Shown here piece after piece: positions 11,768 through 44,820 of a stretch of 64,000 nucleotides of DNA. The translations under genes and the position numbers were made by a program. Numbering within the stretch: position 1 is the first letter of the stretch; the number at the start of each line of letters is the position of its first letter. Under the pieces are notes generated by a model, which had not been told where the DNA came from, did not search any database, and saw nothing but the letters and a program-made list of their open reading frames with translations. Source of the stretch: Ectothiorhodosinus mongolicus (GTDB lineage Bacteria; Pseudomonadota; Gammaproteobacteria; Ectothiorhodospirales; Ectothiorhodospiraceae); NCBI RefSeq assembly GCF_022406875.1, contig NZ_CP023018.1, positions 1,561,914-1,625,913 of the forward strand, given 5' to 3'.

Positions 11768-11770
11768 AAC

Positions 11771-22398: not shown

Positions 22399-22534
22399 GA
22401 GCTAACTAAGTTCGGTGAGTTCGAGTAAAAAACAGCGTAATTATGTTTTAACTATATGAATAGAAAGGAGAAAAAAAATTTCGAAAAGGGGCTTGCTTTT
22501 ATTTTGATCACATGATCTCATTATCACACGCAGA

Positions 22535-22578: not shown

Positions 22579-22622
22579 GGATGTTTTGGGTAAAACCAAA
22601 ACGTCGGAGGCATTTTTTTTTT
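22571..22622 (+). terminator. Leader terminator of the amide operon
   Basis: ATGCCTC (22571-22577) pairs with GAGGCAT (22607-22613), enclosing a second stem GATGTTTTGG/CCAAAACGTC around GTAAAA; a run of about ten T follows. It lies 80 bp before the first gene and overlaps P2, forming a terminator/antiterminator switch. Confidence 0.93.
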
Positions 22623-22703
22623 GCTTTTCAAACCGGGATGCGGAGCACAAGACTCCAACCCACAGAGGGCACCCGGATCAGATTCACCAAAGGAGATTTG
22701 ACG

Positions 22704-23939: not shown

Positions 23940-23953
23940 TGTCATTGCCTTGT

Positions 23954-23982
23954 CAGTGGCTGGCTCTCACAGCCAGCCACTG
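23954..23982 (+). promoter_or_regulatory. Intercistronic hairpin after the binding-protein gene
   Basis: CAGTGGCTGGCT and AGCCAGCCACTG form a perfect 12 bp stem around CTCAC, followed only by AATTTTTA. It probably partly terminates or protects the upstream mRNA so that binding protein is made in excess over the permeases. Confidence 0.7.
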
Positions 23983-24040
23983 AATTTTTACCTGCACCGT
24001 TGTAGACAAGCGGGGTACGCAGCGTGGCTTTGGGGGACTC

Positions 24041-24910: not shown

Positions 24911-24920
24911 GGGGGGCGAG

Positions 24921-27443: not shown

Positions 27444-27499
27444 GTTTTTTATGAGTCAGGAGGTGATCCTGACGTGTGTGTAAACCAAAGGAGACTGTA

Positions 27500-28540
27500 A
27501 TGAGACACGGTGATATTTCTAGCAGTAACGATACCGTCGGTGTGGCCGTAGTTAACTATAAGATGCCGCGCCTGCATACCAAGGCAGAAGTGCTGGCTAA
27601 CGCCGAGAAGATCGCGGAGATGATCGTGGGCATGAAAGCCGGTTTGCCTGGAATGGACCTGGTGATTTTTCCGGAATACTCGCTGCAGGGGATTATGTAT
27701 GACCCTAAGGAAATGATGGAAACGGCAGTGACCTGCCCTGGCGAAGAGACCGAAATTCTGGCCCGCGCCTGTCGTAAGGCCAATACGTGGGGTGTTTTTT
27801 CTCTGACCGGTGAGCGTCACGAAGAGCATCCTCGTAAAAACCCCTACAACACCCTGATTCTCATGAACAACAAGGGTGAGGTGGTGCAGAAATATCGCAA
27901 GGTTATCCCCTGGTGTCCGATCGAAGGATGGTATCCCGGTAACCAGACCTATGTGAGCGATGGTCCCAAGGGTATGAAAGTCAGCCTGATCATTTGTGAT
28001 GATGGCAACTACCCAGAAATCTGGCGTGATTGCGCTATGAAGGGCGCTGAGCTGATTGTCCGCTGTCAGGGCTACATGTATCCCGCTAAGGAGCAGCAGG
28101 TTGTTATGGCCAAAGCCATGGCTTGGGCCAACAACTCCTATGTTGCGGTGGCCAATGCCGCAGGTTTTGATGGTGTGTATAGCTATTTTGGTCATTCCGC
28201 GATCATTGGCTTCGACGGTCGTACCCTTGGTGAGTGTGGCGAGGAAGAGATGGGTATTCAGTACGCCCAGTTGTCCATCTCGCAGATTCGTGATGCGCGG
28301 GCCAACGACCAGTCACAGAACCATCTGTTTAAGATTCTGCATCGTGGCTACACCGGCATGGATGCGTCCGGTGACGGTTCGCGTGGTCTGGCTGAATGTC
28401 CCTTCGAGTTCTACAAGACCTGGGTCAATGATGCCGAGAAAGCGCGCGAGAACGTTGAGGCTATTACCCGTAAGACGGCAACCACAGCGGAGTGCCCAGT
28501 GGGCAGCCTGCCGTATGCCGGTAAGGAAAAAGAGGCATAA
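27500..28540 (+). CDS. amiE: Aliphatic amidase
   Basis: Cytosolic hydrolase of short-chain amides (acetamide, propionamide) to acid and ammonia. 346 aa, the same length as Pseudomonas AmiE, with the catalytic triad at the same positions: Glu59 in FPEYSLQG, Lys134 in [13 protein letters not shown], Cys166 in [19 protein letters not shown] precedes the ATG at 27500. It follows the importer genes by 56 bp and belongs to the AmiR-controlled unit. Confidence 0.97.
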
Positions 28541-28557
28541 ACCAACCGTCAGCTGTT

Positions 28558-28587
28558 GCGGTGTCCCTCTCCATTGAGGGGCACCGC
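28558..28587 (+). promoter_or_regulatory. Intercistronic hairpin between amiE and amiB
   Basis: GCGGTGTCCCTC and GAGGGGCACCGC pair over 12 bp (one G-U) around TCCATT. No T-run follows. It could stabilise the amiE mRNA end and lower expression of amiB. Confidence 0.7.
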
Positions 28588-28612
28588 GATAGCCCGGACT
28601 AAGGAACTGATG

Positions 28613-29764
28613 ATGCCATTTTTGAATGACATGCTCGATCAAACCGCTCGGGAACGCGCTGATCGCGAGGCGCTCAGTCGTGAGAATGCGGCTTCTGAGG
28701 ATGTGGTGCTGTCGCATCTAAACAGTGACCGCCGCTTGGAAAGTCGATTTCAGTTTGATCTAGAAAAAATCATGGCGCATCTGCGTTCGGAAATTCTCGG
28801 TCAGGAGGAGGCGCTCGCGGCTGTGGAAGACAGCCTCAAAGTAGTGCGGGCGGATATTACAGATCCCCGCAAACCCTTGTTTGTGTCTTTGTTTCTCGGG
28901 CCAACGGGTGTGGGAAAAACCGAAATCATTCGTTCTCTGGCGCGAGCACTGCATGGGGATGCCGATGCTTTTTGCCGGGTGGATATGAATACTTTGTCCC
29001 AAGAACACTACTCTGCAGCCATCACCGGGGCACCTCCCGGTTATGTGGGTGCCAAAGAGGGCAAGACGCTTTTTGATGTTGACAAGCTAGAAGGGGCGCG
29101 TGGCCGTCCGGGGATTGTTCTTTTTGACGAGCTAGAGAAGGCCTCAGCCGAGGTGATCCAAGCACTGCTCAATATTTTTGATAACGGGATGCTGACTGTG
29201 GCGTCGGGCGAGCGTTCCTACAGTTTCCGCAATACCCTGATTTTCATGACCAGCAATTTGGGCGCCAAGGACGTGCAGAGGTTTGAACGTCAAAAACAGG
29301 ACACTTTTTGGAAATCACTATGGCACAAGCGCATGGACCGTAAAGATCTGGTGCGCATCATCAATGACCGCCTGGTTGAAACCTTCTCTCCAGAGTTTAT
29401 TAATCGCATCGATAACATCACCATTTTTAACTGGATTTCGCGGGACTTAATGCGAGGTCTGATTGATATTGAAACCCAGCGTTTGAACAAGCGCCTGAGC
29501 AAATACCGTTGCCATGTTGAGCTGGCCGAGGAACTGATACAGCACATTGCGCAAGAGGGTTTCAATCAGCAATTCGGTGCGCGCAGTCTGCGCCGCGCCA
29601 TGCGCCGTTATCTGGAGGTGCCGTTTGCGGAGTTTTTGCTCACCGAGCATACCCCATCGCATTCGGCGGAGACCGAGGCGATTACATACCGCGCGCATTG
29701 GAACGCGAATGCCGTTCGTTTTACTTCCATGAGTCAAAAAACCGCCGAATCGGAGCAGGGGTGA
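28613..29764 (+). CDS. amiB: AmiB-type AAA+ ATPase
   Basis: 383 aa ClpA/ClpB-like AAA+ protein with one ATPase module: LGPTGVGKTEIIRSLA (Walker A), IVLFDELEKASAEVIQALLNIFD (Walker B), FMTSNLG (sensor 1) and GARSLRRAMRRYLEVP (sensor 2 region). In Pseudomonas the amiEBCRS operon has such a gene between amiE and amiC; its role is not well defined, and a chaperone or transport-energising role has been suggested. ATG 28613 is chosen for its spacing to AAGGA; ATG 28610 is possible. Confidence 0.9.
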   Translation: MPFLNDMLDQTARERADREALSRENAASEDVVLSHLNSDRRLESRFQFDLEKIMAHLRSEILGQEEALAAVEDSLKVVRADITDPRKPLFVSLFLGPTGVGKTEIIRSLARALHGDADAFCRVDMNTLSQEHYSAAITGAPPGYVGAKEGKTLFDVDKLEGARGRPGIVLFDELEKASAEVIQALLNIFDNGMLTVASGERSYSFRNTLIFMTSNLGAKDVQRFERQKQDTFWKSLWHKRMDRKDLVRIINDRLVETFSPEFINRIDNITIFNWISRDLMRGLIDIETQRLNKRLSKYRCHVELAEELIQHIAQEGFNQQFGARSLRRAMRRYLEVPFAEFLLTEHTPSHSAETEAITYRAHWNANAVRFTSMSQKTAESEQG

Positions 29765-29767
29765 GTC

Positions 29768-30568
29768 ATGTTTAAGCACATCATTGTACCGGTAGATGAA
29801 TCCACGCGGTCGCTCAGCGCCGTACCCGTTGCGTCGCAATTGGCGGAGCAATTCTCAGTGGACACACAACTGCTCTCCGTCATTAGTCCGAAAGACAAAC
29901 CTGAGGCCCGAGAAACCAAAATTAAAAGCAAGATGGCGGATTTAGGTCTAACGCCGGCTGCGGTTGAAGTAAAGCAATCCATGTCGGTCATCGACACCTT
30001 GCTGGCAGTGTTCTCGAGGCAGGACGAACCGCTGATGGTGATGTCCACTCATGCGCGCAATCCCATTCATGAGATAGCCGTGGGCAGTGTCGCCTCCGCC
30101 GTACTGCTGCAGAGTCGCCGACCGATGATGTTTGTCGGCCCGCGTTTTGCTGTCCATTGGCGGGGCCCCATCCGTCATCTGGTGGTGCCTTTCGATGGTT
30201 CGGAGTTCAGTGAGGCCAGCGTGTCGCTGGCAGCGGACTGGGCGCAGCAGGCTGACCTGCCCATGGTGTTGGTACAGGTGTTGGACCCCAGCCAAGCTGG
30301 CGCGGCTGGATCCGATGTACTTGAGTGGGGCTCTTTAAAACGCAAGGCCAATGAGTTGTGCGACCAGGGGCTGAAGGTCAGCTATGAAGTACTACATGGC
30401 AGTGATGTCGCTGGAGCCATCAGTCATTTTGTGGACACCGTAAAAAGCCCGTTGGTGGTGATGTCGACGCGTGGCGCTTCCGGTCTTGATCGTCTCAAGA
30501 TAGGCAGTGTGGCCAAATCTCTTTTGGAGGAGGTTAGTGCACCAGTTTTATTAAAAGCACCGAACTAA
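29768..30568 (+). CDS. Tandem universal stress protein
   Basis: 266 aa with two Usp domains. The first opens MFKHIIVPVDESTRSLSAV; the second opens RHLVVPFDGSEFSEASVSLA and ends with the ATP-type motif STRGASGLDRLKIGSVAKSLL. It starts three bases after amiB and so belongs to the amide operon, an unusual partner for it. Possible role: nucleotide-dependent stress or metabolic signalling; nothing more specific is supported. Confidence 0.9.
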   Translation: MFKHIIVPVDESTRSLSAVPVASQLAEQFSVDTQLLSVISPKDKPEARETKIKSKMADLGLTPAAVEVKQSMSVIDTLLAVFSRQDEPLMVMSTHARNPIHEIAVGSVASAVLLQSRRPMMFVGPRFAVHWRGPIRHLVVPFDGSEFSEASVSLAADWAQQADLPMVLVQVLDPSQAGAAGSDVLEWGSLKRKANELCDQGLKVSYEVLHGSDVAGAISHFVDTVKSPLVVMSTRGASGLDRLKIGSVAKSLLEEVSAPVLLKAPN

Positions 30569-30722
30569 AAAATAGCTGAGGCCAGGCGCCTCACGCCAAA
30601 CTGAGAGCGGTAATTTTTTCTAAACAGCGCGAACAGGCGCCGTGCTGTTTATGGGAGTTTTGCGCCTAAATAGACCAAACCAGATCGTTCTGGAACTTGT
30701 CGATACTAAAGGAGCAAAGAGG

Positions 30723-31880
30723 ATGAAATCTAAAAATACAGAGAGCAGGCCAATGCTCAAGTCACGCAGAAGCCGTTTATCCGCCGCCGTTATCGCCAGC
30801 ATGAGTGCGTTGGCTATGACGAGTGCCGCCCATGCTGGTGCAACCATCAATATAGGCCCGAATCAGTCTTTCACTATTGGTGGTGGTCTGATGGCCACGT
30901 ATCTGTCCGTTGAGAATGGGGCTGATAATGGCTCCCGTTCAAGTGAATTCAGCGTGGATTTGATGCGCCTATACACCACTGCTCAGATCGCAGAGGGAAT
31001 TTTCTTTGATTTTAATTTGGAGCATGTTGATGCGGAAAAAGACACGCGTCTTCTGGATGCGGTCGCACGTTTTGAGTTCAATGATTGGGCCAATGTGCGC
31101 GTCGGTCGTACCGTGCTGCCCATGACGCGAGCAGGCATGTCCGGTCCGTTTTTTGTCGGTGCCATTGGTTTGAATCAGTATCCATTGACCGAACAATGGA
31201 CGGGCAGACAGTCATTCCGTGACGATGGCGCCGTCCTCTGGGGCCAGGGGGCATTGGGAGAAGCTCATTTCAAATACCATCTGGGTGTATTTAATGGCGG
31301 TAGCACGCCTAGCGACAGCCCGCTGATGGCCAGCCGTCTGACCCTGAATTTCTGGGATGCGGAACCGGGCTATTTCCATGCCAACACCTATTATGGCGCA
31401 GCCAATATTCTTGCCATCGGCGTGGCCTTGCAGCGTCAAAGTGACGTGATCAAAAAAACCGATGACTCTCGCGGTAATTATCAGGCTTATGGCGTTGACT
31501 TCCTAATGGAGAGGGTGCTGGATGATGGCGCGGTCTTTACCATCGATGCAGCCTACAACGACTATGATTTGGACGGTGGGACATTTGACAGCAGTGGCAA
31601 CAGATCCGCATCCGCTGCTGCAGGAAGCAACAGCGCCTACTACATACAGGGCAGTTACATGTTCCCGGCTAGCAATGCTTTAGGTCGTCTGCGTCCGTAT
31701 CTCCGGTATGAGAATGTGAACCCGGATGCGGGGTCTGATACCGAAAAATGGTCATTGGGCTTGGAGTATGTGATCAATGGTCATAATGCCAAAGTCAGTG
31801 GCGTTTTAGGTCGCATTGATGAAAAAGACAGCAACGAAGCAAACAACTTCTTCATGCTGGGATTGCAGTTCCAAATCTAA
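30723..31880 (+). CDS. Outer-membrane porin of the amide operon
   Basis: 385 aa. A signal peptide (SRLSAAVIASMSALAMTSAAHA) is followed by a beta-barrel sequence beginning INIGPNQSFTIGGGL, and the chain ends FMLGLQFQI, a barrel-type C-terminus. The preferred start is the ATG at 30723 next to AAGAGG. A porin co-expressed with an amide ABC importer is known in Methylophilus (FmdC with FmdDEF), so diffusion of amides across the outer membrane is the likely job. Confidence 0.82.
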   Translation: MKSKNTESRPMLKSRRSRLSAAVIASMSALAMTSAAHAGATINIGPNQSFTIGGGLMATYLSVENGADNGSRSSEFSVDLMRLYTTAQIAEGIFFDFNLEHVDAEKDTRLLDAVARFEFNDWANVRVGRTVLPMTRAGMSGPFFVGAIGLNQYPLTEQWTGRQSFRDDGAVLWGQGALGEAHFKYHLGVFNGGSTPSDSPLMASRLTLNFWDAEPGYFHANTYYGAANILAIGVALQRQSDVIKKTDDSRGNYQAYGVDFLMERVLDDGAVFTIDAAYNDYDLDGGTFDSSGNRSASAAAGSNSAYYIQGSYMFPASNALGRLRPYLRYENVNPDAGSDTEKWSLGLEYVINGHNAKVSGVLGRIDEKDSNEANNFFMLGLQFQI

Positions 31881-31893
31881 TGGGGCTTGCGTT

Positions 31894-31921
31894 AACCTGC
31901 GGGAAGAAACTCCCGCAGGTT
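31894..31921 (+). promoter_or_regulatory. Intercistronic hairpin after the porin gene
   Basis: AACCTGCGGGA and TCCCGCAGGTT form a perfect 11 bp stem around AGAAAC, without a T-run. Third hairpin of this kind in the amide operon. Confidence 0.7.
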
Positions 31922-31985
31922 CTCACCAAACCTGCCTTTGATTTTGAGAAGTGATGAGGATATTTCGCTGATGTCGGAGGCGGTC

Positions 31986-33191
31986 ATGAATAACAATAAT
32001 GATGGTGCAAAACGCCGTGACACGCGTTTGCTTGGGGTGCTGTTTTCTCAAACAGGTGTTTTGTCCATTATTGAGAAAACCCAGCAGCGGGCGGCGATGC
32101 TTGCCTTACATGAGATCAATGAAGCTGGCGGCATCTTGGGATCTCCCCTAAGGGCAATCAGTTATGATGCGGCCTCTAGGATCCCTCGTTATGGCGAATT
32201 GGCAGAAGAGCTAATGGTGCGTGATGGTGTGAAGATCATGATTGGGTGTTATGCGTCATCCGCGCGTAAAGAAGTCCTACCCATTGTTGAGCGGCACAAT
32301 GGCATCCTTTTTTATCCCACGTTATATGAGGGTTTTGAATATTCCAGTAACGTAATTTATGGCGGCGCTACGCCGAATCAGAATAGCGTTCCTCTTGCCC
32401 AGTACATGACGCGCAATTATGGTTCGCGCTGCTATTTTGTCGGCTCTGATTATATTTATCCCCGAGAATCCAATCGCGTGATGCGTCATATTATCCGTGA
32501 ACTCGGCGGTGAAGTGGTGGGGGAACGTTATTTGCCTTTGAAGGCTAAGTCAGAGCAATACAAACGCATCATCGAAGACATAAAAAAGACTCGGCCAGAG
32601 TTTATTTTTTCCACGGTGGTGGGGACGGGCACGGTGATTTTTTATCAGGCCTATCATGAGGCATTTGCTAGCGTATCCCGGGCGCCGATTTGCAGTCTAA
32701 CAACGAGTGAAGCGGAAATTTATGGGATGGGTGCTGCGGCTGCGCGTGGTCATATCACGGCGGCGCCATATTTTCAAAACCTGCCGACAGAATCCAGTCA
32801 ACGGTTTGTGGCCCGCTATCGGGCACTTTATGGGGATGATGCTTTTGTCACCAGCTGTGGCGAAGCAGCGTATTCTCAGGTGCATATGCTCTCACTGGCT
32901 ATGGAGCAGGCGGCTAGCCATGATGTGGCAGACATACGTTCTGCGCTGTATGGGATCAGTTTCATGGCTCCACAGGGGCCAGTCAGAGTCGACCCCGAAA
33001 ATAACCATACTTATCTGCACTCGCGAATTGCCAAGGTCGGAGATAACTGTGAATATGAGGTAGTTTCAGATCTTGAGGTTTCCATTAAGCCGGATCCCTA
33101 TTTGGTTGTTCCAAATTTAAATGAATGGGGTGATGCTTGGGCAATGCGGGGTAGTCCTAAAAACACTGGTTCGTCAATGGACAATGATTGA
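31986..33191 (+). CDS. amiC: AmiC: cytosolic amide sensor and inhibitor of AmiR
   Basis: 401 aa periplasmic-binding-protein fold without a signal peptide, as in Pseudomonas AmiC. Seen: LGVLFSQTGVLSIIEKTQQRAAMLALHEIN, GILFYPTLYEGFEYSSNVIYGG and SDYIYPRESNRVMRHI. The ATG at 31986 has GGAGG five bases upstream; longer starts would add an unrelated N-terminus. In the known system AmiC sequesters AmiR until an amide binds. It overlaps amiR by four bases. Confidence 0.93.
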   Translation: MNNNNDGAKRRDTRLLGVLFSQTGVLSIIEKTQQRAAMLALHEINEAGGILGSPLRAISYDAASRIPRYGELAEELMVRDGVKIMIGCYASSARKEVLPIVERHNGILFYPTLYEGFEYSSNVIYGGATPNQNSVPLAQYMTRNYGSRCYFVGSDYIYPRESNRVMRHIIRELGGEVVGERYLPLKAKSEQYKRIIEDIKKTRPEFIFSTVVGTGTVIFYQAYHEAFASVSRAPICSLTTSEAEIYGMGAAAARGHITAAPYFQNLPTESSQRFVARYRALYGDDAFVTSCGEAAYSQVHMLSLAMEQAASHDVADIRSALYGISFMAPQGPVRVDPENNHTYLHSRIAKVGDNCEYEVVSDLEVSIKPDPYLVVPNLNEWGDAWAMRGSPKNTGSSMDND

Positions 33192-33820
33192 TTGTGAAAG
33201 GTAGTGTTCAGAAGCTAATTAGTGATATGCGCAACCTGCGGGTATTGGTGATCCATGCCTACGATGCGCACACGGAAGAGCTTGTTCGACACATTAGGCG
33301 CATTGGCTGCAATACGGAGGCAGTCTGGCCAGTTCCAGAAAAGCTACCCGATAACGTTGATATTCTGTTCTTGGGACTCGATGAAAAGCCCAATCCCGTT
33401 TTAACTAAGGCAATCAAGGCCTATCCGCGTGCGCGACCCAGTATTATTGGCGTCGTTGCCTATGAGAACCCCTCGGTTCTGCAGCAGCTGATTGAATTAA
33501 ATGCCGATGCGGTTATCGCCCAACCTGCACGGCCTTATGGCGTACTGAGCTCAATGGTTCTAGCGAGACGCATTCGGCTAGATGCTCAGGCCAACGAATT
33601 GGCGCTCCTCAAGCTGCAGGAAAAAGTGCATCAGGAACAAACGTTGAACCGAGCCAAACTGATTTTGATGAAGCTCCATCAAATTGGAGAGGAAGAGGCA
33701 TACAGCATCATGCGTGAGCAGGCCATGGTGAAGCGGGTACGCATCGTCGAAATTGCCGAAGCCATCATCAACGCCGACGGCATTCTCGGAAATATGGCGC
33801 CCAAAAAGAAGCTCTCTTAA
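33188..33820 (+). CDS. amiR: AmiR: ANTAR-domain transcription antiterminator
   Basis: About 210 aa. An N-terminal response-regulator-like domain without phosphorylation signature (LRVLVIHAYDAHTEELVRHIRRIGC), a coiled coil (LALLKLQEKVHQEQ), then the ANTAR domain AKLILMKLHQIGEEEAYSIMREQAM with its conserved Ala, Leu-Met, Glu-Ala and Ala-Met positions. The start is TTG at 33188 or GTG at 33194; ATG 33227 would cut into the first strand. It should bind the dual hexaloop leader at 22535-22578. Confidence 0.92.
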   Translation: MIVKGSVQKLISDMRNLRVLVIHAYDAHTEELVRHIRRIGCNTEAVWPVPEKLPDNVDILFLGLDEKPNPVLTKAIKAYPRARPSIIGVVAYENPSVLQQLIELNADAVIAQPARPYGVLSSMVLARRIRLDAQANELALLKLQEKVHQEQTLNRAKLILMKLHQIGEEEAYSIMREQAMVKRVRIVEIAEAIINADGILGNMAPKKKLS

Positions 33821-33831: not shown

Positions 33832-33865
33832 GGGGTACGACCCCAGCAAAACGGGGTCGTACCCC
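33832..33865. repeat. Palindromic repeat pair after amiR
   Basis: GGGGTACGACCCC (33832-33844) and GGGGTCGTACCCC (33853-33865), inverted around 8 bp. It may also act as the 3' end structure of the amide operon. Confidence 0.93.
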
Positions 33866-34374: not shown

Positions 34375-34388
34375 GACTCACGGACTCG

Positions 34389-34431
34389 TGGGGTCGTACC
34401 CCATTTCTGGAAAAGGGGTCGTACCCCATTT
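34389..34431. repeat. Two direct palindromic repeat units
   Basis: TGGGGTCGTACCCCATTT at 34389-34406 and GGGGTCGTACCCCATTT at 34415-34431. Unlike most other sites, the two units are in the same orientation. Confidence 0.93.
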
Positions 34432-34464
34432 GTGCACCAGTGCGAGGCGTGCTGCCCGATGTGC

Positions 34465-34481
34465 TGCATTTAAATAGTGCA
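34465..34481 (+). promoter_or_regulatory. Candidate NtrC binding site
   Basis: TGCATTTAAATAGTGCA matches the general NtrC palindrome (TGCA, A-rich centre, GTGCA) and lies 75 bp upstream of the sigma-54 promoter, a usual enhancer distance. A half-site TGCACCA is at 34433-34439. Confidence 0.5.
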
Positions 34482-34555
34482 TTTATGTGAGTTTTGGGTT
34501 CGGGCAAAAAGGGCATAAATTCTTAACCCACTGAATAAACGAAGAAAAATTTTTC

Positions 34556-34571
34556 TGGCATGGAACCTGCT
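34556..34571 (+). promoter_or_regulatory. Sigma-54 (-24/-12) promoter of the ABC/nitrilase operon
   Basis: TGGCATGGAACCTGCT matches the consensus TGGCAC-N5-TTGCW at all but two positions, with the invariant GG and GC at the right spacing. The predicted start is about 12 bp downstream, near 34581. Sigma-54 control suggests induction under nitrogen limitation. Confidence 0.75.
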
Positions 34572-34583
34572 TAGAGAAAGATA

Positions 34584-34597
34584 TCTTGTATACAAGA
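34584..34597 (+). promoter_or_regulatory. Candidate GntR/FCD operator
   Basis: TCTTGTATACAAGA is a perfect 14 bp palindrome with the FadR-subfamily core TTGTATACAA (general form TnGTnnnACnA). It covers the predicted transcription start, so the GntR protein encoded at 39077 would repress by blocking the promoter. Confidence 0.75.
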
Positions 34598-34642
34598 CGA
34601 CTTTCTACCGGACGCTCAGGCGTCATTGCTGATAGGTGAACC

Positions 34643-35479
34643 ATGGCAACAGCTGAACGCATCATAGACACTGCGCCTGAATGGGTCCAAACCCCAAAAG
34701 GTTCTGGCGATCCGGCCGCGAAACACCGACCGCATATCACCATTCGTGGTCTTAAGAAGACTTTCAAAACGCGAACCCTTTATGAGAATTTTTCGCTGGA
34801 TCTGCCGCGCGGCAAAATTACTACCGTATTTGGCCCCAACGGCTGCGGCAAGTCCACACTCATCAATATGGTATCGGGCTTGCTGCCCTTTGATCAGGGT
34901 GAAGTCTTATTTGACGGCAAAGCGTTGAAAGACATCACTTTTGGTTATGTGTTTCAGAATTACCGCGAGGCCTTGTTTCCGTGGATGCGCGCCCGAGACA
35001 ACATCGCCTACCCCCTGCGTATACGAGGCATGAGTAAGGCCGAGTGTGATGCTCGGGTGGATGAGCTCGCCGCCTCATTTGAGATTGGTTTTGATCTAAA
35101 TCTCAAGCCCTTCAATCTCTCGGGCGGTCAGCAGCAATTGGTGTCCATCATGCGGGCGCTAGCACCAGAGCCCGAGGTGCTATTTTTGGACGAGCCCTTT
35201 TCCGCACTCGATTATGAGATGACCTTGTTCATCCGCGATCGCCTGCAGGCCATCTTCATGGAAACCGGCATCACCATGATCGTCGTTTCCCATGATCTCG
35301 AGGAGGCGGTTTTTCTGGCTGACGAAGTTCTGCTGCTCTCCAAACCGCCTACTCAGGTGGCCGAGATCATCGAGGTGAATTCACCGCGGCCGCGAAATGA
35401 TCAGACCCTCTCCTCGGATGAGTTCGTAGCCACCAAAGCCCACTGTCTCCAAGTCTTTCAACGCGAGGTGCGTCGATGA
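34643..35479 (+). CDS. NitT/TauT-family ABC ATPase
   Basis: 278 aa ATPase of the nitrate/sulfonate/pyrimidine-type importer group: Walker A FGPNGCGKSTLIN, Q-loop YVFQNYREALFPWMRARDN (the LxPW segment typical of this group), signature LSGGQQQLVSIMRAL, Walker B LFLDEPFSALD. It has an extra N-terminal ~30 residues. First gene after the sigma-54 promoter; overlaps the permease gene by ATGA. Confidence 0.92.
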   Translation: MATAERIIDTAPEWVQTPKGSGDPAAKHRPHITIRGLKKTFKTRTLYENFSLDLPRGKITTVFGPNGCGKSTLINMVSGLLPFDQGEVLFDGKALKDITFGYVFQNYREALFPWMRARDNIAYPLRIRGMSKAECDARVDELAASFEIGFDLNLKPFNLSGGQQQLVSIMRALAPEPEVLFLDEPFSALDYEMTLFIRDRLQAIFMETGITMIVVSHDLEEAVFLADEVLLLSKPPTQVAEIIEVNSPRPRNDQTLSSDEFVATKAHCLQVFQREVRR

Positions 35480-36321
35480 GCGATGTAAAAACACCGGTGA
35501 CGCGCCAGGCGTGGACTTTCCCAGTCAGCCTCGCGCGCAACGCGCAACATTGGGCTCAAGCCCTAAACCAATATTCCGATGCGGCACGCGTCTATGTCCT
35601 GGGGCCAATCTTGCTGCTGATGATCTGGGGTTTTGCAGCGCATGCGGAACTGGTGAGCCCGAGACTGCTGCCCGGCCCCTTAGAGACGTTGGGACAGTTT
35701 TGGAACAGCATGATTTACGGGGATCTTTTGCAAGATTTCTGGAACACCTTAAGACGCACTCTGTATGCGTTTGCGATTGCCGCGATCGTCGGCATCCCCT
35801 TGGGCGTCATGCTGGGCTCATCGCGAAAACTGTATGGCTCGGTGGAGTTTTTGGTGGATTTCTTCCGATCCACACCGGCGACTGCGATGTTTCCTTTGTT
35901 CCTGTTGCTGTTTGGTATTGGTGAAGAATCACAGGTGGCGGTGGCAGCCTTTGCGGCGTTGCTCATCGTCATCTTTAGCGCGGCCTATGGCGTAATCAAT
36001 GCCACCAAGACTCGAGTGCTTGCCGCTCGGGTGATGGGCGCAGGCCGCTGGCGGGTATTTAAAGACGTGATGATTTACGAGTCTTTGCCACAAACCTTTG
36101 TCGGTCTGCGGACCGCCATCTCGTTGGCCTTAGTGGTGATTATCGTCGCGGAGATGTTCATCGGGTCTAGCGATGGTCTGGGTCGTCGGATTATCGATGC
36201 CCAGCAAGTCTATGACCTACGCGAAATGTACGCCTCCATCATCGCCACCGGCGTGATGGGGTACTCCCTAAATCTTCTTTTCATCGCTGTAGAGCGACGT
36301 GTTGTTCGCTGGATTAACTGA
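35476..36321 (+). CDS. NitT/TauT-family ABC permease
   Basis: 281 aa, about six helices, with the EAA-type loop VMGAGRWRVFKDVMIYESLPQTFVGLRTAISLAL and the usual LRRTLYAFAIAAIVGIPLGVMLGSS opening. Pairs with the preceding ATPase and following binding protein. Confidence 0.92.
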   Translation: MSDVKTPVTRQAWTFPVSLARNAQHWAQALNQYSDAARVYVLGPILLLMIWGFAAHAELVSPRLLPGPLETLGQFWNSMIYGDLLQDFWNTLRRTLYAFAIAAIVGIPLGVMLGSSRKLYGSVEFLVDFFRSTPATAMFPLFLLLFGIGEESQVAVAAFAALLIVIFSAAYGVINATKTRVLAARVMGAGRWRVFKDVMIYESLPQTFVGLRTAISLALVVIIVAEMFIGSSDGLGRRIIDAQQVYDLREMYASIIATGVMGYSLNLLFIAVERRVVRWIN

Positions 36322-36354
36322 TTTCCCAACCCGAATCTGAACGAGGAAAACATC

Positions 36355-37350
36355 ATGAAATTCGCCTTCCTGAAAAAGACATTCGCCGCCTCGGCGCTCG
36401 CCGCTCTGATGGCATTACCCGTGCAGGTCAATGCCCAACAGCTGGAGAGAGTCACAGCCTCATGGTTGCCGATTATGCAAACCATGGCCTTTTACGTGGC
36501 ACTCGAAGAGGGGCTATTCGAGAAAGCCGGCATCGATATCAACCCGGTACGTTTCCAAAACCCCAACCAAATCATCGACTCACTGGTTTCTGGTCAAGCA
36601 GACTTTGGCCCTCCGGGCGCTGCTGCTGGTATCACCGTATTGGCCGAATCACGCTTTCCCGGCACCTTCAAAGTATTTGGTCTGCAGGGCGGCTCCATCA
36701 AATACGGCTTTGATAATGATGCTTTGATCGTTGGCACCAACTCCGAGATCCAGAACTTCGCCGATCTGCGCGGTAAGTCGATTGGCACAATCCCCGGAGT
36801 ACAGTGGCGCACCATCACCAGCCACATTCTTCGCCAAAACGGCCTAGAGCCAGGACGTGATGTGCGCTTATCGGAAATCGCGGTGCCTCAGCAGTTCGCT
36901 GCGGTGGCCAGTGGCGCGGTGGATGCAACGCTTTCGCTTGAGCCGGTCGGGTCCATCACCGATAACAGCGATGACGTGCGTAAGGCGATGAACAACCCCG
37001 TTGCTCAGTTTATCTCCGATCCGTTCTACTCCGGAGCGGCGATTTTAACCACGGACTTCATCAGAAATCGTCCTGAGGTGGCCCGCAGAGTGGTTGAGGT
37101 GTTGGATGAGGCCACGCGCCTAGCGAACGAGAACTTCGATCATTATCGGCCGATCATTGCCAAGTACACGGCGGTTCGTCCGGAACAGGCAGAGTTCGTT
37201 GCACAGCCCTACCTGCGCGCATGGTCCGAGCTCAATGACGAGGATCTGAATTCCTATCAGGCATTCGTGGATGTGTTTCATTCCGAGGGCGTTTTGTCCG
37301 AGCGCATGGATATTCGCAACCTCATTCTGACGCCCGAAGATTTCCAATAA
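36355..37350 (+). CDS. NitT/TauT-family periplasmic binding protein
   Basis: 331 aa with a Sec signal peptide (FAASALAALMALPVQVNAQ). The mature part VTASWLPIMQTMAFYVALEEGLFEKAGID and LVSGQADFG is typical of the SsuA/ThiY/TauA fold. Ligand unknown; the enzymes downstream suggest a small amide- or urea-like nitrogen compound. Confidence 0.9.
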   Translation: MKFAFLKKTFAASALAALMALPVQVNAQQLERVTASWLPIMQTMAFYVALEEGLFEKAGIDINPVRFQNPNQIIDSLVSGQADFGPPGAAAGITVLAESRFPGTFKVFGLQGGSIKYGFDNDALIVGTNSEIQNFADLRGKSIGTIPGVQWRTITSHILRQNGLEPGRDVRLSEIAVPQQFAAVASGAVDATLSLEPVGSITDNSDDVRKAMNNPVAQFISDPFYSGAAILTTDFIRNRPEVARRVVEVLDEATRLANENFDHYRPIIAKYTAVRPEQAEFVAQPYLRAWSELNDEDLNSYQAFVDVFHSEGVLSERMDIRNLILTPEDFQ

Positions 37351-37381
37351 GTCGTTTGTTACCGACCCAGAGGTATTGATC

Positions 37382-39064
37382 ATGATCCCATCGCAACCCT
37401 CATTTCGCGCCGCTGTGGTGCAAACGCTTGCCAGCTTGGGTGATGTACAAGAAAACATCCGCCTGCTGGAGCATTACACCCTTGAAGCCAAGCGCCAAGG
37501 CGCCAAGCTCATCGTCTTCCCAGAGTGCATGAACAGCGGTTATCTGTTTGACGATATCGCCCATGCAAGGCAGATCGCTGAGCCTTTGGATGGCCCATTT
37601 GCCACTGCCATGCAACGGCTTTGTCGTGAGCATGATCTCTACATCGCCAGCGGATTCACCGAGCTGGGTGAGAATGCCAAGATCTATAACTCGGGTCTTT
37701 TCTATGGGCCCGATGGCCAGCTGCTGTTGCATTACCAAAAACAATTTCTCGCCACCCACGATCAGAACTGGTTTGATTGCGGCATCAAGGGCAATCCAGT
37801 GGTTGAGACTCCTTTGGGGAATATTGGGCTGCTTATCTGCTTTGACGGACGTATTCCGGAGATCGCTCGCAGCATCGCCTTACAAGGAGCGGATGTGGTG
37901 TTGGATATGGCAAATTTCTTCGCCATGGATCAGGCCGATCTTTGGGTGCCGGCGCGCGCCATGGAAAATGGTATCTGGATTGTCGCTGCCACCAAGGCGG
38001 GGGTGGAGCGCAGTATCCACTACCCAGGCGGCAGCATGATCGTGGCCCCCGATGGGGATGTGAAAGCCTATGTGCCCAAGGAGACCCATGGTGTGGTGTC
38101 GTGGACGATTGATGTGGCTGCCGCCAGAGACAAGCGATGGCTGGCTGGCGGTGATCGGTTTGCAGACCGCGCCCCTGAGACCTATGGCTGTTTGACCAAG
38201 GCGTTTGAGAACACGCCCTTGGCGGCCATTCTTGAGCAGCCACTGATTCCCGAGAAGGCCACGACTAAGCTGGCCGTGGTGCAAGATCATGCCGTGGTGT
38301 CAGAGGGCGTTGAATCAGCTCTTGATATGGTGGAACACGCAGCGCGCTTGGGCGCTAAATTGATCGTCACCCCGGCATTTTTTGCCTGCCCTAGCTGGCT
38401 TCCTGATGCGCAACAGGCGCGGGATCTGGCCAGTCAGCAGAGCATGCTGCTGCATCAGGCGGCCGGCATTGCACAACGCTGGCAAACGCATATCGTGCTG
38501 GATACGGTTGAAGAGCAGGACGGTGCGCTTTACCACACCGCCTTATTGGTGGGCCCCAGCGGCCAGGTTCTCAGCCGTTATCGCCAAGTCCATGTTGAAC
38601 CCGAGATTCGTGACTGGTGCACGCCGGGTCAAAGCTGGACGGTGACAGAGACTCAGGTGGGCCGCGTTGGCATGATGCTGGGCTACGACGGACGATTCCC
38701 CGAGTCCAGCCGTGAGCTGGCATTGCTGGGCGCCGATATCATCGCTTGGCCCACTGCTTTGCGAGAAAAGCGTGAGCGTGATCTGCTCGCGGTGCCTAAG
38801 GCCGAAGACAACCGCATCTATTTGGCGATGGCCAATCGTACGGATGCGCCCTTTGCCGGTGGGTCGCTGGTTGTGCCGCCCAACGGTTTTCCACTTTGGG
38901 AGCTGGATCAGGTGTCGCCAGTGGTGACGCGTAAAGGCGCGGTGATACCGACGTTCGCCAATCTCGCGCTTAGCCGCCAAAAGTTTATGATTCCTCGCGT
39001 CAATATGTTGCGCAACCGCTTGGTAGAGACCTATGAGAGTCTCAGAAGCCAAGCAGCAGCTTAG
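37382..39064 (+). CDS. Tandem nitrilase-superfamily amidohydrolase; second domain catalytically degenerate
   Basis: 560 aa made of two carbon-nitrogen hydrolase domains. Domain 1 (about 8-280) has the complete triad: Glu48 in FPECMNSG, Lys120 in YQKQFLATHD, Cys153 in LICFDGRIPE. Domain 2 (about 297-545) aligns well, but the equivalents are Ala333 (TPAFF), Gln403 (YRQVHVE) and Gly435 (MLGYDGRFPE), so it cannot be catalytic by the known mechanism and is probably structural or regulatory. The start is ATG 37382. Its place between an importer and allophanate hydrolase suggests it hydrolyses the imported compound; the substrate is not known. Confidence 0.88.
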   Translation: MIPSQPSFRAAVVQTLASLGDVQENIRLLEHYTLEAKRQGAKLIVFPECMNSGYLFDDIAHARQIAEPLDGPFATAMQRLCREHDLYIASGFTELGENAKIYNSGLFYGPDGQLLLHYQKQFLATHDQNWFDCGIKGNPVVETPLGNIGLLICFDGRIPEIARSIALQGADVVLDMANFFAMDQADLWVPARAMENGIWIVAATKAGVERSIHYPGGSMIVAPDGDVKAYVPKETHGVVSWTIDVAAARDKRWLAGGDRFADRAPETYGCLTKAFENTPLAAILEQPLIPEKATTKLAVVQDHAVVSEGVESALDMVEHAARLGAKLIVTPAFFACPSWLPDAQQARDLASQQSMLLHQAAGIAQRWQTHIVLDTVEEQDGALYHTALLVGPSGQVLSRYRQVHVEPEIRDWCTPGQSWTVTETQVGRVGMMLGYDGRFPESSRELALLGADIIAWPTALREKRERDLLAVPKAEDNRIYLAMANRTDAPFAGGSLVVPPNGFPLWELDQVSPVVTRKGAVIPTFANLALSRQKFMIPRVNMLRNRLVETYESLRSQAAA

Positions 39065-39076
39065 AAGGGGTCTGCT

Positions 39077-39808
39077 ATGAAGGCTTTTACTCCCGTATCC
39101 GAGCGGATTTATAACGCGATTAAGGCGGAGCTTTATCTGCAGCTTAGACCGCTAGAAAAGGTGACCGAGGCCAATCTGAGTGAGCGCTTTGGGGTGAGTC
39201 GTATTCCGGTGCGCGAAGCTCTGCAAAGACTGGTTCGCGAGGGCTTTTTGATGGCGCATTTTCGCAGTGGCTACAGCATCGCTATCGCGAGTCAGAGAGA
39301 AGTGGATGAGCTCAATGTGCTCCGGGCCCTGTTTGAAGAGCAGGGGGTTTTGGCAGCTACTCGCGGTTCGAAGCCACCTAAGAGTCTGGATGCTTTATGG
39401 GAGTTCTGGCGCGACGATAAGAATGGCGACGGTCTCGATCCCATCGGACTCAGCGAAAAAAACCGGGACTTTCACTCGGCAATCGTCGCTCAGACGGGGA
39501 ATCGCGAAATGGTGCGCCAGCATGGCTTGGTTTTTGATCGGATTGAGGTCGTGCAGCGCTTGGATTTTACCGAGGTGGATCGCGTAGCCATTACCTTTGC
39601 TGAGCACCGCCGCATTCTCGAGCACCTGATGCGCGGAGATGGCGCTACGGCATGGGCCGCGCTCAAGCTACACCTTCAAGAGAGTAATGAGCATGTGCGT
39701 CAGCTGGCTGAAGTGCTGGCTGCGGAGGCGCAAGCCAATGATGCAATAGCCAGCGTCGCGGGGGGTGATATCCGTGCCATCGGTCCATTAAGGGGGAACC
39801 ATGAATGA
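39077..39808 (+). CDS. GntR-family regulator with FCD domain
   Basis: 243 aa. N-terminal winged helix (ANLSERFGVSRIPVREALQRLVREGFL) and C-terminal FCD domain with candidate metal/ligand residues in NRDFHSAIV, EHRRILEHL and LKLHLQES. The palindrome at 34584-34597 is of the type bound by this subfamily, so it probably senses a pathway intermediate and controls this operon. It overlaps the next gene by 8 bp. Confidence 0.92.
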   Translation: MKAFTPVSERIYNAIKAELYLQLRPLEKVTEANLSERFGVSRIPVREALQRLVREGFLMAHFRSGYSIAIASQREVDELNVLRALFEEQGVLAATRGSKPPKSLDALWEFWRDDKNGDGLDPIGLSEKNRDFHSAIVAQTGNREMVRQHGLVFDRIEVVQRLDFTEVDRVAITFAEHRRILEHLMRGDGATAWAALKLHLQESNEHVRQLAEVLAAEAQANDAIASVAGGDIRAIGPLRGNHE

Positions 39809-41636
39809 GCCGAGGACCAAGCCGATATCGATATCGCAGCTGCGGGAGGGTTATCGATCAGGGCGTATCACTCCGCGCCAATTTATTTTGTCGTGCGTTG
39901 CCCGCATCCGCGAAACCCAAGGCAACCCTATCTGGATTCGCATCTTAAGCGATGAGGAGTTGATTCCCTATTTGGATCAACTGGAATCACGGGGTCAGGA
40001 GGATTTGCCGCTCTATGGCATTCCTTTTGCGATTAAGGACAATATTGATCTGGCGGGCATTCCCACGACAGTGGCCTGCCCAGAGTTTGCCTACACACCA
40101 ACCGAGTCGGCCTTCGTGGTCGAACAGTTGATTGCTGCCGGGGCCATCCCCATGGGGAAAACCAATTTGGATCAGTTTGCCACCGGTCTGGTGGGCACCC
40201 GATCACCTTTTGGCGCCTGCGCAAATCCTTTTAATGCTGAGTTTATCGCTGGCGGGTCGAGTTCGGGTTCAGCGGTCGCGGTGGCATTTGGGATGGTGAG
40301 CTTTGCGCTGGGCACGGATACAGCGGGATCGGGCCGTGTGCCTGCTGCATTGAATAACATCATTGGTTACAAACCCACTCGAGGTCTATTGAGCAATCGT
40401 GGGGTAGTTCCTGCCTGTCGTTCTTTGGACACGATCTCGATTTTCGCGCTCAATATCGATGATGCACGCTTGGTTCATCAATGCGCCGCGCAATGGGACT
40501 CACAAGACAGTTATTCTCGATTACCCGCGCACCGAACCCCTTGGGAGCCGCCACTGGGGGATCGATTTACGTTTGGGGTGCCCCCACGACATCAGTGGCA
40601 GTTTTTCGATGACAATGGTTGCGATGCCTTGTTTGAACAGAGTATCGCGGCTTTAGAATCTCTGGGTGGCGAAGCGGTCGAGTTGGATTTGTCGCCTTTT
40701 TTTGCCGCGGCCAAACTGCTTTATGACGGACCTTGGATTGCAGAGCGCTATTTGGCTATTCAGTCTTTTATTGAGTCCCGTCCCGAGGCGTTACTTCCGG
40801 TCACCCGAGATATCATCAACCAAGGTAAACACTATTCCGCCTTGGATGTATTCCATGCGCAGTATGAGTTGGAGGATTTACGCCGCCACAGCGCTTCTGT
40901 TTTTACTGAGTTGGATTTTGTGTTAACGCCAACCATTGGCGGTGCAGTGCGCCTTAGTGAGGTTTACGAAAATCCCATCCAGCAGAATGATCGCCTGGGT
41001 CAATACAATAATTTCGCGAATTTGCTGGATCTTTGTGCAGTGACTGTGCCCGTTGGATTCAACAGCCATGGCCTGTCTTTTGGCGTCAATCTTTTCTCAT
41101 CTGCGCTTCGCGACGGTCAGGTGCTGCAGGTGGCTGATGGCTTGCATCGTCTTTTGGCTAAGCGCTTTGGTGTGGGTTATGAAGCCTGCTGGGAGGCTCC
41201 GCAAGCGCGTGTTGATTCGAGTGCTTGGGTGAGGGTGATCGTGTGCGGGGCCCACATGAGTGGTCTACCTTTGAATGCTCAGCTCACTGAGCGTGGGGGA
41301 CGTTTGGAGCGAAAAACAAAAACCGCCGCCCAATACAAACTCTATGTCATTAAGGGGCGCGATCTTGATCGCCCTGGACTATTGCAGGTAGCTGAAGGTG
41401 GTTGTTCCATTTCTGTTGAGGTTTGGAATCTACCGATCAGTTGCTTTGGATCATTTGTAGCGCAGATCAAAAAGCCGCTGGGCATCGGTTCTGTGGCCTT
41501 AGACGATGGTAGCGTTTACCCAGGTTTCCTTTGTGAATCCTATGCCACTGAAGGTTCTCAGGAAATCAGTCATCTTGGTGGTTGGCGTGAATACCTTTCG
41601 TTTACCAATGATGCGAAGGGCTGTTTGCTCGATTAG
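39801..41636 (+). CDS. atzF: Allophanate hydrolase
   Basis: 611 aa. An amidase-signature domain with the Lys-Ser-Ser triad (AIKDNIDL, GGSSSGSAVA, GTDTAGSGRVPAA) is followed by a ~140 aa C-terminal domain of the AtzF/DUR1,2 allophanate hydrolase type. The reaction is allophanate to ammonia and CO2 (the C-terminal domain completes the process in related enzymes). No urea carboxylase or cyanuric-acid genes are present, so the allophanate should come from the product of the upstream nitrilase-type enzyme. Confidence 0.9.
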   Translation: MNEPRTKPISISQLREGYRSGRITPRQFILSCVARIRETQGNPIWIRILSDEELIPYLDQLESRGQEDLPLYGIPFAIKDNIDLAGIPTTVACPEFAYTPTESAFVVEQLIAAGAIPMGKTNLDQFATGLVGTRSPFGACANPFNAEFIAGGSSSGSAVAVAFGMVSFALGTDTAGSGRVPAALNNIIGYKPTRGLLSNRGVVPACRSLDTISIFALNIDDARLVHQCAAQWDSQDSYSRLPAHRTPWEPPLGDRFTFGVPPRHQWQFFDDNGCDALFEQSIAALESLGGEAVELDLSPFFAAAKLLYDGPWIAERYLAIQSFIESRPEALLPVTRDIINQGKHYSALDVFHAQYELEDLRRHSASVFTELDFVLTPTIGGAVRLSEVYENPIQQNDRLGQYNNFANLLDLCAVTVPVGFNSHGLSFGVNLFSSALRDGQVLQVADGLHRLLAKRFGVGYEACWEAPQARVDSSAWVRVIVCGAHMSGLPLNAQLTERGGRLERKTKTAAQYKLYVIKGRDLDRPGLLQVAEGGCSISVEVWNLPISCFGSFVAQIKKPLGIGSVALDDGSVYPGFLCESYATEGSQEISHLGGWREYLSFTNDAKGCLLD

Positions 41637-41705: not shown

Positions 41706-42161
41706 ATGTCTAAATCTATTACGAGTCTCAGTGCAAAAGAGCTATTTGAACTGGCTAGGCGGCGCGAGGGCGAGGAGCGGGAAAGAAAGCAGATTGAGAA
41801 TAGACGGACTATTCAGAGTTTAAGGATGCAACGTAAAGCCCTAGTCAAACAAAATACCAAGGCGCTCAAACAGCTACAAAAACAGCAGGACTTGGCGCTG
41901 CGTGAGATTGATCAGCAAATGGCTGCGCTATCTCGTTCGGCGCGCAGCATCGGCAGTATTTCAGGCGGCCGAGACGAGCCATCTACCCAAAAAGTTATGG
42001 ACTATCTCAGTACGGTTCCAGAGGCCAGCTCAAAGGAGCTCAAGGCAGCGCTAGAGGAACGCGCCGCGAGCGTTCCACACCTCGCGCAGACCCTCGCTTA
42101 CCTCGTGCGCCAAGGTCGCGTCGAAAGAGTACGCCGCGGCATCTATCGCCGCACCCCCTAA
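41706..42161 (+). CDS. Coiled-coil protein with C-terminal winged-helix-like domain
   Basis: 151 aa, family not recognised. Residues ~8-75 are highly charged and helical (ELARRREGEERERKQIENRR and many Lys/Gln), a likely coiled coil. Residues ~92-150 (STQKVMDYLSTVPEASSKEL through LVRQGRVERVRRGIYRRTP) look like a small winged helix with a basic wing. GGGGAGG precedes the ATG. It is a single gene between the allophanate hydrolase and a long palindrome; DNA binding is plausible but unproven. Confidence 0.65.
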   Translation: MSKSITSLSAKELFELARRREGEERERKQIENRRTIQSLRMQRKALVKQNTKALKQLQKQQDLALREIDQQMAALSRSARSIGSISGGRDEPSTQKVMDYLSTVPEASSKELKAALEERAASVPHLAQTLAYLVRQGRVERVRRGIYRRTP

Positions 42162-42214
42162 AAATGGGGACGGATTTATTTTTTTAGTGAAAAAATAAAT
42201 CCGTCCCCATTTTT
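42160..42214. repeat. Long perfect inverted repeat (second repeat family)
   Basis: A 25 bp arm at 42160-42184, containing TGGGGACGGATTTATT, is perfectly complementary to 42190-42214, containing AATAAATCCGTCCCCA, around a 5 bp loop. It starts at the stop codon of the upstream gene. A near-identical half-copy sits inside thiL. Confidence 0.95.
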
Positions 42215-44781: not shown

Positions 44782-44820
44782 GGGGTACGACCCCAATTGG
44801 GGTCGTACCCCATTTTTTTT
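44782..44820. repeat. Palindromic repeat pair with T-run
   Basis: GGGGTACGACCCC and GGGGTCGTACCCC are inverted with only AATT between them, followed by a run of T. This copy could serve as an intrinsic terminator for the upstream gene; it lies 16 bp before the permease gene. Confidence 0.9.

What the first reader, a model, noticed from the sequence alone, without database searches (positions are those of the whole stretch)
34384..41636. Sigma-54-driven importer/tandem-nitrilase/allophanate hydrolase operon: a candidate undescribed nitrogen pathway
Seen: NitT/TauT-type binding protein, permease and ATPase, a two-domain nitrilase-superfamily enzyme, a GntR/FCD regulator and allophanate hydrolase, tightly linked on one strand. 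Known: allophanate arises from urea (urea carboxylase), biuret (an isochorismatase-like biuret hydrolase) or cyanuric acid, and none of those enzymes is here. Inference: the nitrilase-type enzyme converts an imported compound (a substituted biuret, acylurea, carbamoyl amide or similar) into allophanate or a precursor, giving a new route into allophanate.
Basis: partly seen in the sequence, partly recalled or inferred. Interest (0 to 1): 0.8.

Follow-up and report, generated by a model that had tools for sequence, protein, structure and literature searches.

The report
Importer–tandem nitrilase–allophanate hydrolase operon
A bacterial gene set pairs a nutrient importer and an unusual double nitrilase (one half working, one half dead) with the enzyme that finishes off allophanate, in a genome where every known allophanate-making enzyme that was looked for is missing, which points to an undescribed way of extracting nitrogen from a small biuret-like or cyano-type compound.

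Summary
Six co-directional genes (34643-41636) encode a NitT/TauT-type importer, a tandem CN-hydrolase ("NIT"), a GntR/FCD regulator and a true allophanate hydrolase (AtzF), behind an exact sigma-54 site (34556-34571). In sister genomes the complete AtzF genes sit beside urea carboxylase.

NIT plus importer is a conserved cassette (56 of 59 loci; proteobacteria, cyanobacteria). AtzF lies within 7 kb of NIT in 6 of 60 loci (about 0.2 expected), acquired several times independently. In the four related genomes with AtzF closest to NIT it is again the only AtzF, without urea carboxylase or BiuH. Other loci put AtzE-AtzH, or nitrile hydratase plus a guanylurea-hydrolase-type enzyme, beside NIT.

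NIT's C-terminal half has lost its catalytic cysteine in all 40 aligned sequences.

Best reading: NIT converts imported biuret or cyanourea to allophanate. Substrate unproven; no described system found. New variant of a known kind.

The parts
34556..34571 (+). candidate sigma-54 (-24/-12) promoter TGGCATGGAACCTGCT, about 70 bp before the first gene
   Evidence: only exact pattern match in the window; equivalent strong sites in all 10 homologous loci with a divergent sigma-54 activator
34643..35479 (+). ABC transporter ATPase, NitT/TauT type
   Evidence: Pfam/NCBIfam; 55-71% identical orthologue beside NIT in nearly all loci
35476..36321 (+). ABC transporter permease
   Evidence: BPD_transp_1; conserved with NIT
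36355..37350 (+). periplasmic binding protein (NMT1/SsuA type), ligand unknown
   Evidence: AF2 model pLDDT 90, nearest folds SsuA/TauA/ThiY types
37382..39064 (+). tandem CN-hydrolase 'NIT' (560 aa): active N-domain E48-K120-D127-C153, C-domain without catalytic cysteine (G434)
   Evidence: AF2 model pLDDT 93.9, pTM 0.93, N-domain nearest Pyrococcus amidase/nitrilase, Z 40.6
39077..39808 (+). GntR/FCD transcriptional regulator
   Evidence: Pfam; GntR-type gene directly after NIT also in L013, L044, L047
39801..41636 (+). allophanate hydrolase AtzF with AH_C domain; Ser-cisSer-Lys signature around K79, S153, S177
   Evidence: TIGR02713 735.7 bits over cut-off 511; closest solved chain 4gyr, allophanate hydrolase, E 4e-154; motif positions
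31938..33820 (+). AmiC-like amide sensor and AmiR-like ANTAR antiterminator, end of the upstream amide island; possible but unproven link to the operon
   Evidence: Peripla_BP_5, AmiR_N, ANTAR; distant tandem nitrilases (27-32% id) lie in AmiC/AmiR/Urt clusters

Best explanation
A nitrogen-limitation (sigma-54) operon that imports one small, nitrogen-rich compound and mineralises it through allophanate. Step 1 (inferred): the ABC importer brings in the compound. Step 2 (inferred): the N-terminal half of NIT, through Cys153, removes one nitrogen as ammonia and leaves allophanate; the only direct substrates that fit this chemistry are biuret (or an N-substituted biuret) as amide, or cyanourea as nitrile. 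Step 3 (well supported by family): AtzF splits allophanate into ammonia and CO2. The C-terminal half of NIT is a dead duplicate that probably replaces the second subunit of the usual CN-hydrolase dimer (inferred). The GntR protein probably senses the substrate or an intermediate (inferred).
For: Tight single-strand operon. AtzF is the genome's only copy, and urea/guanidine carboxylase, CgdAB, AtzE and BiuH are missing, so this AtzF has no other identified source of allophanate. In the same order 7 of 11 other genomes with AtzF have it beside urea carboxylase, and none of the other 46 has NIT. AtzF lies within 7 kb of NIT in 6 of 60 loci (about 0.2 expected, P about 1e-7) in different arrangements, with 6 label changes on the NIT tree. 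In the L024, L040, L044 and L045 genomes that AtzF is again the only one, with no urea carboxylase over cut-off and no BiuH-like protein. Another locus, L033, has AtzE+AtzH directly before the cassette. The N-domain's closest solved structure is an amidase with bound glutaramide, a small diamide. Catalytic E, K and C are invariant in 40 of 40.
Against: About 90% of NIT loci have no AtzF nearby, and 4 cyanobacterial NIT genomes have no AtzF match at all, so in those the product is either not allophanate or is lost by another route. The genome-level co-occurrence of 45/50 is weakened by a high background (98/150). Some NIT genomes also have a real BiuH (L012/L105), which would be redundant if NIT acted on biuret. 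No substrate, ligand or activity is known. The Glu-to-Asp change at position 127 could mean altered chemistry.
Confidence: 0.5

Rival explanations
1. A nitrogen-scavenging island without a shared pathway. NIT is a self-sufficient ammonia-releasing amidase/nitrilase for its own imported substrate, and AtzF is a separate gene that tends to settle in the same nitrogen-controlled region.
For: In most loci NIT with its importer and a LysR or sigma-54 regulator stands alone. The cassette also neighbours a complete second module with its own ABC, nitrile hydratase and hydrolase, showing that separate nitrogen modules do accumulate beside it. An amide island lies upstream in the window.
Against: AtzF is inside the operon with an 8-bp overlap in the window. 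The AtzF beside NIT in four other genomes is their only AtzF, with no urea carboxylase or BiuH, so it would have no evident function under this view.
Confidence: 0.27
2. NIT acts on a cationic or N-cyano relative (guanylurea, cyanoguanidine, cyanamide), and allophanate is reached only after a further step, or only the ammonia from NIT is used.
For: Repeated linkage to a nitrile hydratase plus a hydrolase with the guanylurea-hydrolase signature K145X/Q215E, i.e. a cyanoguanidine theme; cyanobacterial members mostly lack AtzF.
Against: The deiminase needed to turn carboxyguanidine into allophanate (DUF1989) is absent from the window's genome, so AtzF would remain unfed.
Confidence: 0.15
3. AtzF in this operon has drifted to another amide substrate, and the operon degrades something unrelated to allophanate.
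For: The window's AtzF is more divergent than most relatives (735 bits against mostly 780-850).
Against: It is still far over the equivalog cut-off, keeps the AH_C domain and the catalytic signature, and its best solved match is allophanate hydrolase.
Confidence: 0.06

Closest known systems
Guanylurea hydrolase clusters (GuuH with NitT/TauT ABC, Pseudomonas mendocina pMET-2; PMC9800807)
   Same: NitT/TauT importer next to an enzyme that removes ammonia from a biuret-like molecule; downstream use of AtzF in the same strain
   Different: GuuH is an isochorismatase-type hydrolase; the window uses a nitrilase-superfamily enzyme and lacks the guanidine carboxylase/CgdAB steps
Biuret hydrolase BiuH - AtzF pathway (PMC5806882)
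   Same: amide hydrolysis feeding AtzF
   Different: BiuH is an unrelated fold and is absent from the window's genome; NIT would be its non-homologous counterpart if the substrate is biuret
Urea amidolyase pathway (urea carboxylase + AtzF)
   Same: AtzF as last step; the arrangement found in sister genomes
   Different: no urea carboxylase in the window's genome
Pyrococcus PH0642 / P. abyssi nitrilase (1j31, 6ypa, 3ivz)
   Same: closest fold and sequence of the active N-domain: Z 39-41, 30-32% identity
   Different: single-domain chains; NIT is a fused duplicate with a dead second half and an invariant Asp127 where half of its distant relatives have Glu
AmiE/formamidase amide operons with AmiC-AmiR
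   Same: CN-hydrolase plus ABC importer for small amides; distant tandem nitrilases sit in such clusters
   Different: different importer class, no AtzF, 27-32% identity

Membership tests
Allophanate hydrolase (AtzF) | score over the TIGR02713 equivalog cut-off (511 bits) over the full length | tested here: met
   735.7 bits, positions 2-562 of 563
Allophanate hydrolase (AtzF) | C-terminal AH_C domain and amidase-signature Lys/Ser/Ser motifs | tested here: met
   AH_C 157 bits, residues 477-599; FAIKDN, GGSSSGSA, AGSGRV motifs at 76, 151, 175
Nitrilase superfamily (CN_hydrolase) | fold and Glu-Lys-Cys triad | tested here: met
   N-domain E48, K120, C153 invariant in 40 of 40; fold Z 40.6
Nitrilase superfamily (CN_hydrolase) | catalytic Cys in the second domain of the tandem protein | tested here: not met
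   Gly or Asp at position 434 in all 40 aligned sequences; Glu and Lys also lost in the window protein
True nitrilase (acts on nitriles) versus amidase | activity on a nitrile | not testable with these tools
   closest relatives include both a Pyrococcus nitrilase and an amidase
Biuret hydrolase pathway (BiuH) | isochorismatase-fold BiuH in the genome | tested here: not met
   one isochorismatase-family protein, no match to BiuH at E 1e-3
Urea amidolyase pathway | urea carboxylase over the TIGR02712 cut-off | tested here: not met
   best hit 520 bits, biotin-carboxylase part only, cut-off 1304
Guanidine carboxylase pathway | carboxyguanidine deiminase (DUF1989) | tested here: not met
   no DUF1989 match
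Cyanuric acid pathway (AtzD with AtzE or BiuH, then AtzF) | AtzE or BiuH downstream of the ring opener | tested here: not met
   only two amidase-signature proteins in the genome, AtzF and one other taken to be GatA; no BiuH; AtzD itself not tested
NitT/TauT ABC importers | NMT1-type binding protein, matching permease and ATPase | tested here: met
Sigma-54 regulated operon | -24/-12 promoter sequence | tested here: met
   exact site 34556-34571, conserved in position in homologues; promoter activity not tested

The most novel reading that the evidence does not exclude
NIT is the founding enzyme of an undescribed N-cyano/ureide nitrogen pathway: a fused active-plus-dead nitrilase that turns imported cyanourea (or biuret) directly into allophanate. 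It would be the sister module of a [NitT/TauT ABC - Co-type nitrile hydratase - guanylurea hydrolase] module that degrades cyanoguanidine (dicyandiamide), the two travelling together in cyanobacteria, Burkholderiales and wastewater Klebsiella plasmids.
Probability: 0.3. Interest if true: 0.8.

Novelty: new variant of a known kind. Interest (0 to 1): 0.62.

Why it matters
If right, it adds a nitrilase-superfamily entry to allophanate, a hub so far known to be fed by carboxylases, an isochorismatase-type enzyme, an amidase-signature enzyme and a deiminase. It would give a substrate-level handle on an uncharacterised importer-enzyme cassette found at about 60 loci, from rhizobia to cyanobacteria. 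The linked nitrile hydratase/guanylurea-hydrolase module also suggests genes for breaking down dicyandiamide, a fertiliser additive whose degradation genes were not found in the literature searched. The dead second half of the enzyme is a clear test case for a pseudoenzyme domain acting as a built-in dimer partner.

Tried and rejected
1) Acylureas, malonamide-type diamides: rejected as direct sources of allophanate on chemical grounds; amide hydrolysis of an acylurea gives a carboxylate and urea. 2) A guanidine link via riboswitches: Rfam scan of the window, L004, L015 and L018 found no guanidine riboswitch. 3) The nitrile-hydratase-linked isochorismatase hydrolase first looked like BiuH (E 2e-72 to 6azo), but residues 145 and 215 (Lys/Gln in BiuH) are Thr or His/Glu, in line with a proven guanylurea hydrolase (Tyr/Glu), so BiuH was dropped. 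4) Inferring the importer's ligand from the binding protein: fold neighbours are generic SsuA/TauA/ThiY types and alignment with the guanylurea-cluster binding protein was uninformative. 5) Search of 369 class genomes and 47 order genomes for NIT found only the window's own; the pattern scan of genome contigs was needed. 6) Genome-level co-occurrence as proof: weakened because 98 of 150 genomes of the Bradyrhizobium-containing family carry AtzF anyway, and in many NIT genomes AtzF lies in known contexts (urea carboxylase, AtzE-AtzH, BiuH). 7) Literature: no paper in the held library joins dicyandiamide with nitrile hydratase, or describes a tandem nitrilase with allophanate hydrolase. 10) Quick tree only (SH-aLRT support); several long branches, including the window's.

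Full report
OBSERVATION. The window holds the reported operon exactly where stated. Genes: ATPase 34643-35479, permease 35476-36321, NMT1-type binding protein 36355-37350, tandem CN-hydrolase (here NIT) 37382-39064, GntR/FCD 39077-39808, AtzF 39801-41636, with gaps of -8 to +33 bp. AtzF scores 735.7 bits against the TIGR02713 equivalog cut-off of 511 and has the AH_C domain; its closest solved chain is an allophanate hydrolase. A sigma-54 site, TGGCATGGAACCTGCT, lies at 34556-34571, the only exact match to the pattern in 64 kb. Ten homologous loci carry a divergent sigma-54 activator, and all ten have a strong site at the corresponding place. The window lies in a single-contig genome of 2.0 Mb rated 99.95% complete.

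NO IDENTIFIED SOURCE OF ALLOPHANATE IN THE GENOME. The Pfam amidase family rings twice in the whole genome: AtzF and one 491-aa protein, taken from its length and score to be GatA, so AtzE is not present. DUF1989, which includes carboxyguanidine deiminase, is absent. The urea/guanidine carboxylase model finds only a 452-aa biotin carboxylase at 520 bits, against a cut-off of 1304. The only isochorismatase-family protein shows no similarity to BiuH. The cyanuric-acid ring opener was not searched for, but without AtzE or BiuH it could not lead to allophanate by known routes. In the same order 11 other genomes have AtzF; in 7 it lies directly beside urea carboxylase, and the other 4 are partial matches in fragmented assemblies. 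None of the other 46 genomes has NIT. So the window's AtzF stands apart from its relatives in context and most likely depends on something in this operon.

NIT AND ITS IMPORTER ARE A CONSERVED CASSETTE. A pattern scan of 84,980 species genomes gave 65 loci; with a Klebsiella wastewater plasmid and the window, 60 carry NIT at 45% identity or more. Of 59 not cut off by a contig end, 56 have all three importer genes directly upstream. Hosts include Herminiimonas, Oxalicibacterium, Paraburkholderia, Bradyrhizobium, Rhodopseudomonas, Pelagibius and filamentous cyanobacteria.

LINKAGE TO ALLOPHANATE GENES. AtzF lies within 7 kb of NIT in 6 of the 60 loci: the window, L024, L040, L044, L045 and L063. 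About 0.2 would be expected by chance (P about 1e-7, assuming one to two AtzF per 5-Mb genome). It is directly downstream, downstream after a GntR gene, or upstream, and the label changes six times on the NIT tree, where the more distant L012 case was also counted. In L024, L040, L044 and L045 that AtzF is the genome's only full match, urea carboxylase does not reach its cut-off, and no isochorismatase exceeds about 36% identity to BiuH or GuuH. L033 has AtzE and AtzH just before the cassette, and L012 has an AtzF-BiuH operon about 11 kb away. At genome level 45 of 50 NIT genomes carry AtzF. This is weaker evidence, since 98 of 150 genomes of the Bradyrhizobium-containing family do too, and many of those AtzF genes sit with urea carboxylase or AtzE-AtzH.

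A SECOND LINK: A CYANOGUANIDINE-LIKE MODULE. In L004, L015, L019, L021 and L063 the cassette is followed by a second NitT/TauT ABC, a nitrile hydratase and an isochorismatase-type hydrolase; L018 and L020 (cyanobacteria) have the same genes upstream. The nitrile hydratase of L004 is of the cobalt type (VCTLCSC). The hydrolase resembles BiuH (E 2e-72 to 6azo). BiuH binds biuret through Lys145 and Gln215 (PMC5806882). All seven NIT-linked enzymes, and the Stutzerimonas plasmid relative, have Thr or His at 145 and Glu at 215, and a demonstrated guanylurea hydrolase on pMET-2 (PMC9800807) has Tyr and Glu. I infer that this module hydrates cyanoguanidine to guanylurea and hydrolyses that. It suggests, but does not prove, that the neighbouring NIT works on a related N-cyano or ureide compound.

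THE ENZYME. The two halves of NIT are 27% identical. The N-domain keeps Glu48, Lys120 and Cys153 in all 40 sequences examined. Position 127, which aligns with a Glu in half of the distant relatives, is Asp in all 32 close ones; the corresponding Glu in other amidases is known to matter (own knowledge; the mutant 4lf0 is among the fold matches). In the C-domain the cysteine position is Gly or Asp in all 40, and in the window protein the Glu and Lys positions are also lost. AlphaFold2 gives one confident two-domain model (pLDDT 93.9, pTM 0.93). Its N-domain matches a Pyrococcus amidase crystallised with glutaramide, and the P. abyssi nitrilase, at Z 39-41.

MECHANISM. Nitrilase-superfamily enzymes turn an amide or a nitrile into an acid plus ammonia (established chemistry). 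If the acid is allophanate, the substrate must be its amide (biuret, or an N-substituted biuret) or its nitrile (cyanourea). Biuret is favoured by the amidase-like relatives. Cyanourea is favoured by the N-cyano neighbourhood and by genomes that hold both NIT and BiuH. Shown: gene content, absences in the genome, conserved cassette, non-random linkage, dead second domain. Inferred: import of the substrate, formation of allophanate, and the identity of the substrate.

LIMITS. No activity is known. Most NIT loci have no AtzF beside them, and four cyanobacterial genomes lack it entirely. The tree is a quick one with several long branches, the window's included. The 6-of-60 count includes assemblies from metagenomes.

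VERDICT. It is a new variant of a known kind (a new feed into allophanate), with a fair chance of a new nitrogen pathway that can be tested directly.

Noticed in passing
L004:10598-15563, L135:5821-10717, also L015, L019, L021, L063, L018, L020: Module of NitT/TauT ABC + nitrile hydratase + isochorismatase hydrolase with the guanylurea-hydrolase signature (K145X, Q215E): a candidate cyanoguanidine (dicyandiamide) degradation module, on a Klebsiella wastewater plasmid and a Stutzerimonas plasmid.
   Followed up: partly
window 14303-14342, 22331-22397, 33832-33865, 34390-34427, 43037, 44184, 44782-44811: Dispersed palindromic repeat GGGGTCGTACCCC, 13 exact copies (0.06 expected), mostly as inverted pairs, REP/BIME-like; one pair lies inside a long ORF (13631-14950) and two copies lie about 130-165 bp upstream of the operon's sigma-54 site.
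   Followed up: partly
window 22512-33820: Amide island just upstream: Urt-like binding protein, permeases and ATPases, AmiE-type amidase, AmiB-like AAA protein, Usp, porin, AmiC, AmiR.
   Followed up: partly
L005, L006, L007 (plasmids): Distant tandem nitrilases (27-32% identity to NIT), also with a dead second domain, in AmiC/AmiR/Urt clusters, in L005 and L006 with FmdA-type formamidase; common on Klebsiella and Rhizobium plasmids.
   Followed up: partly
L065-L067: 37-38% relatives of NIT beside an amidohydrolase-2 family gene, some with class II aldolase-like and Bug-type binding proteins, apparently a different catabolic pathway.
   Followed up: no
L033 upstream of NIT: AtzE-like gene in two blast pieces and AtzH directly before the NIT importer.
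   Followed up: no
L105:4272-11309: AtzF-BiuH-nucleoside-type ABC operon that also carries an ATPase 66% identical to the NIT-cassette ATPase, about 11 kb from NIT.
   Followed up: no
Bradyrhizobium/Rhodopseudomonas AtzF loci (e.g. L127, L128, L129): AtzF with an AtzE-like amidase, AtzH-like protein and an Opp/Dpp-like ABC transporter; substrate not evident.
   Followed up: no
window 11397-11633: Cobalamin riboswitch ahead of a 644-aa ORF at 11687-13621 (97.6 bits).
   Followed up: no
window 41706-42210: 151-aa protein with a weak AbiEi_4-like winged helix at its end, followed by a 20-pair perfect hairpin with a T run.
   Followed up: no
L104:2048-5156 (own genome): Isochorismatase-family hydrolase between an M20-type amidohydrolase and an aspartate-carbamoyltransferase-like gene; possible separate ureide cluster.
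   Followed up: no
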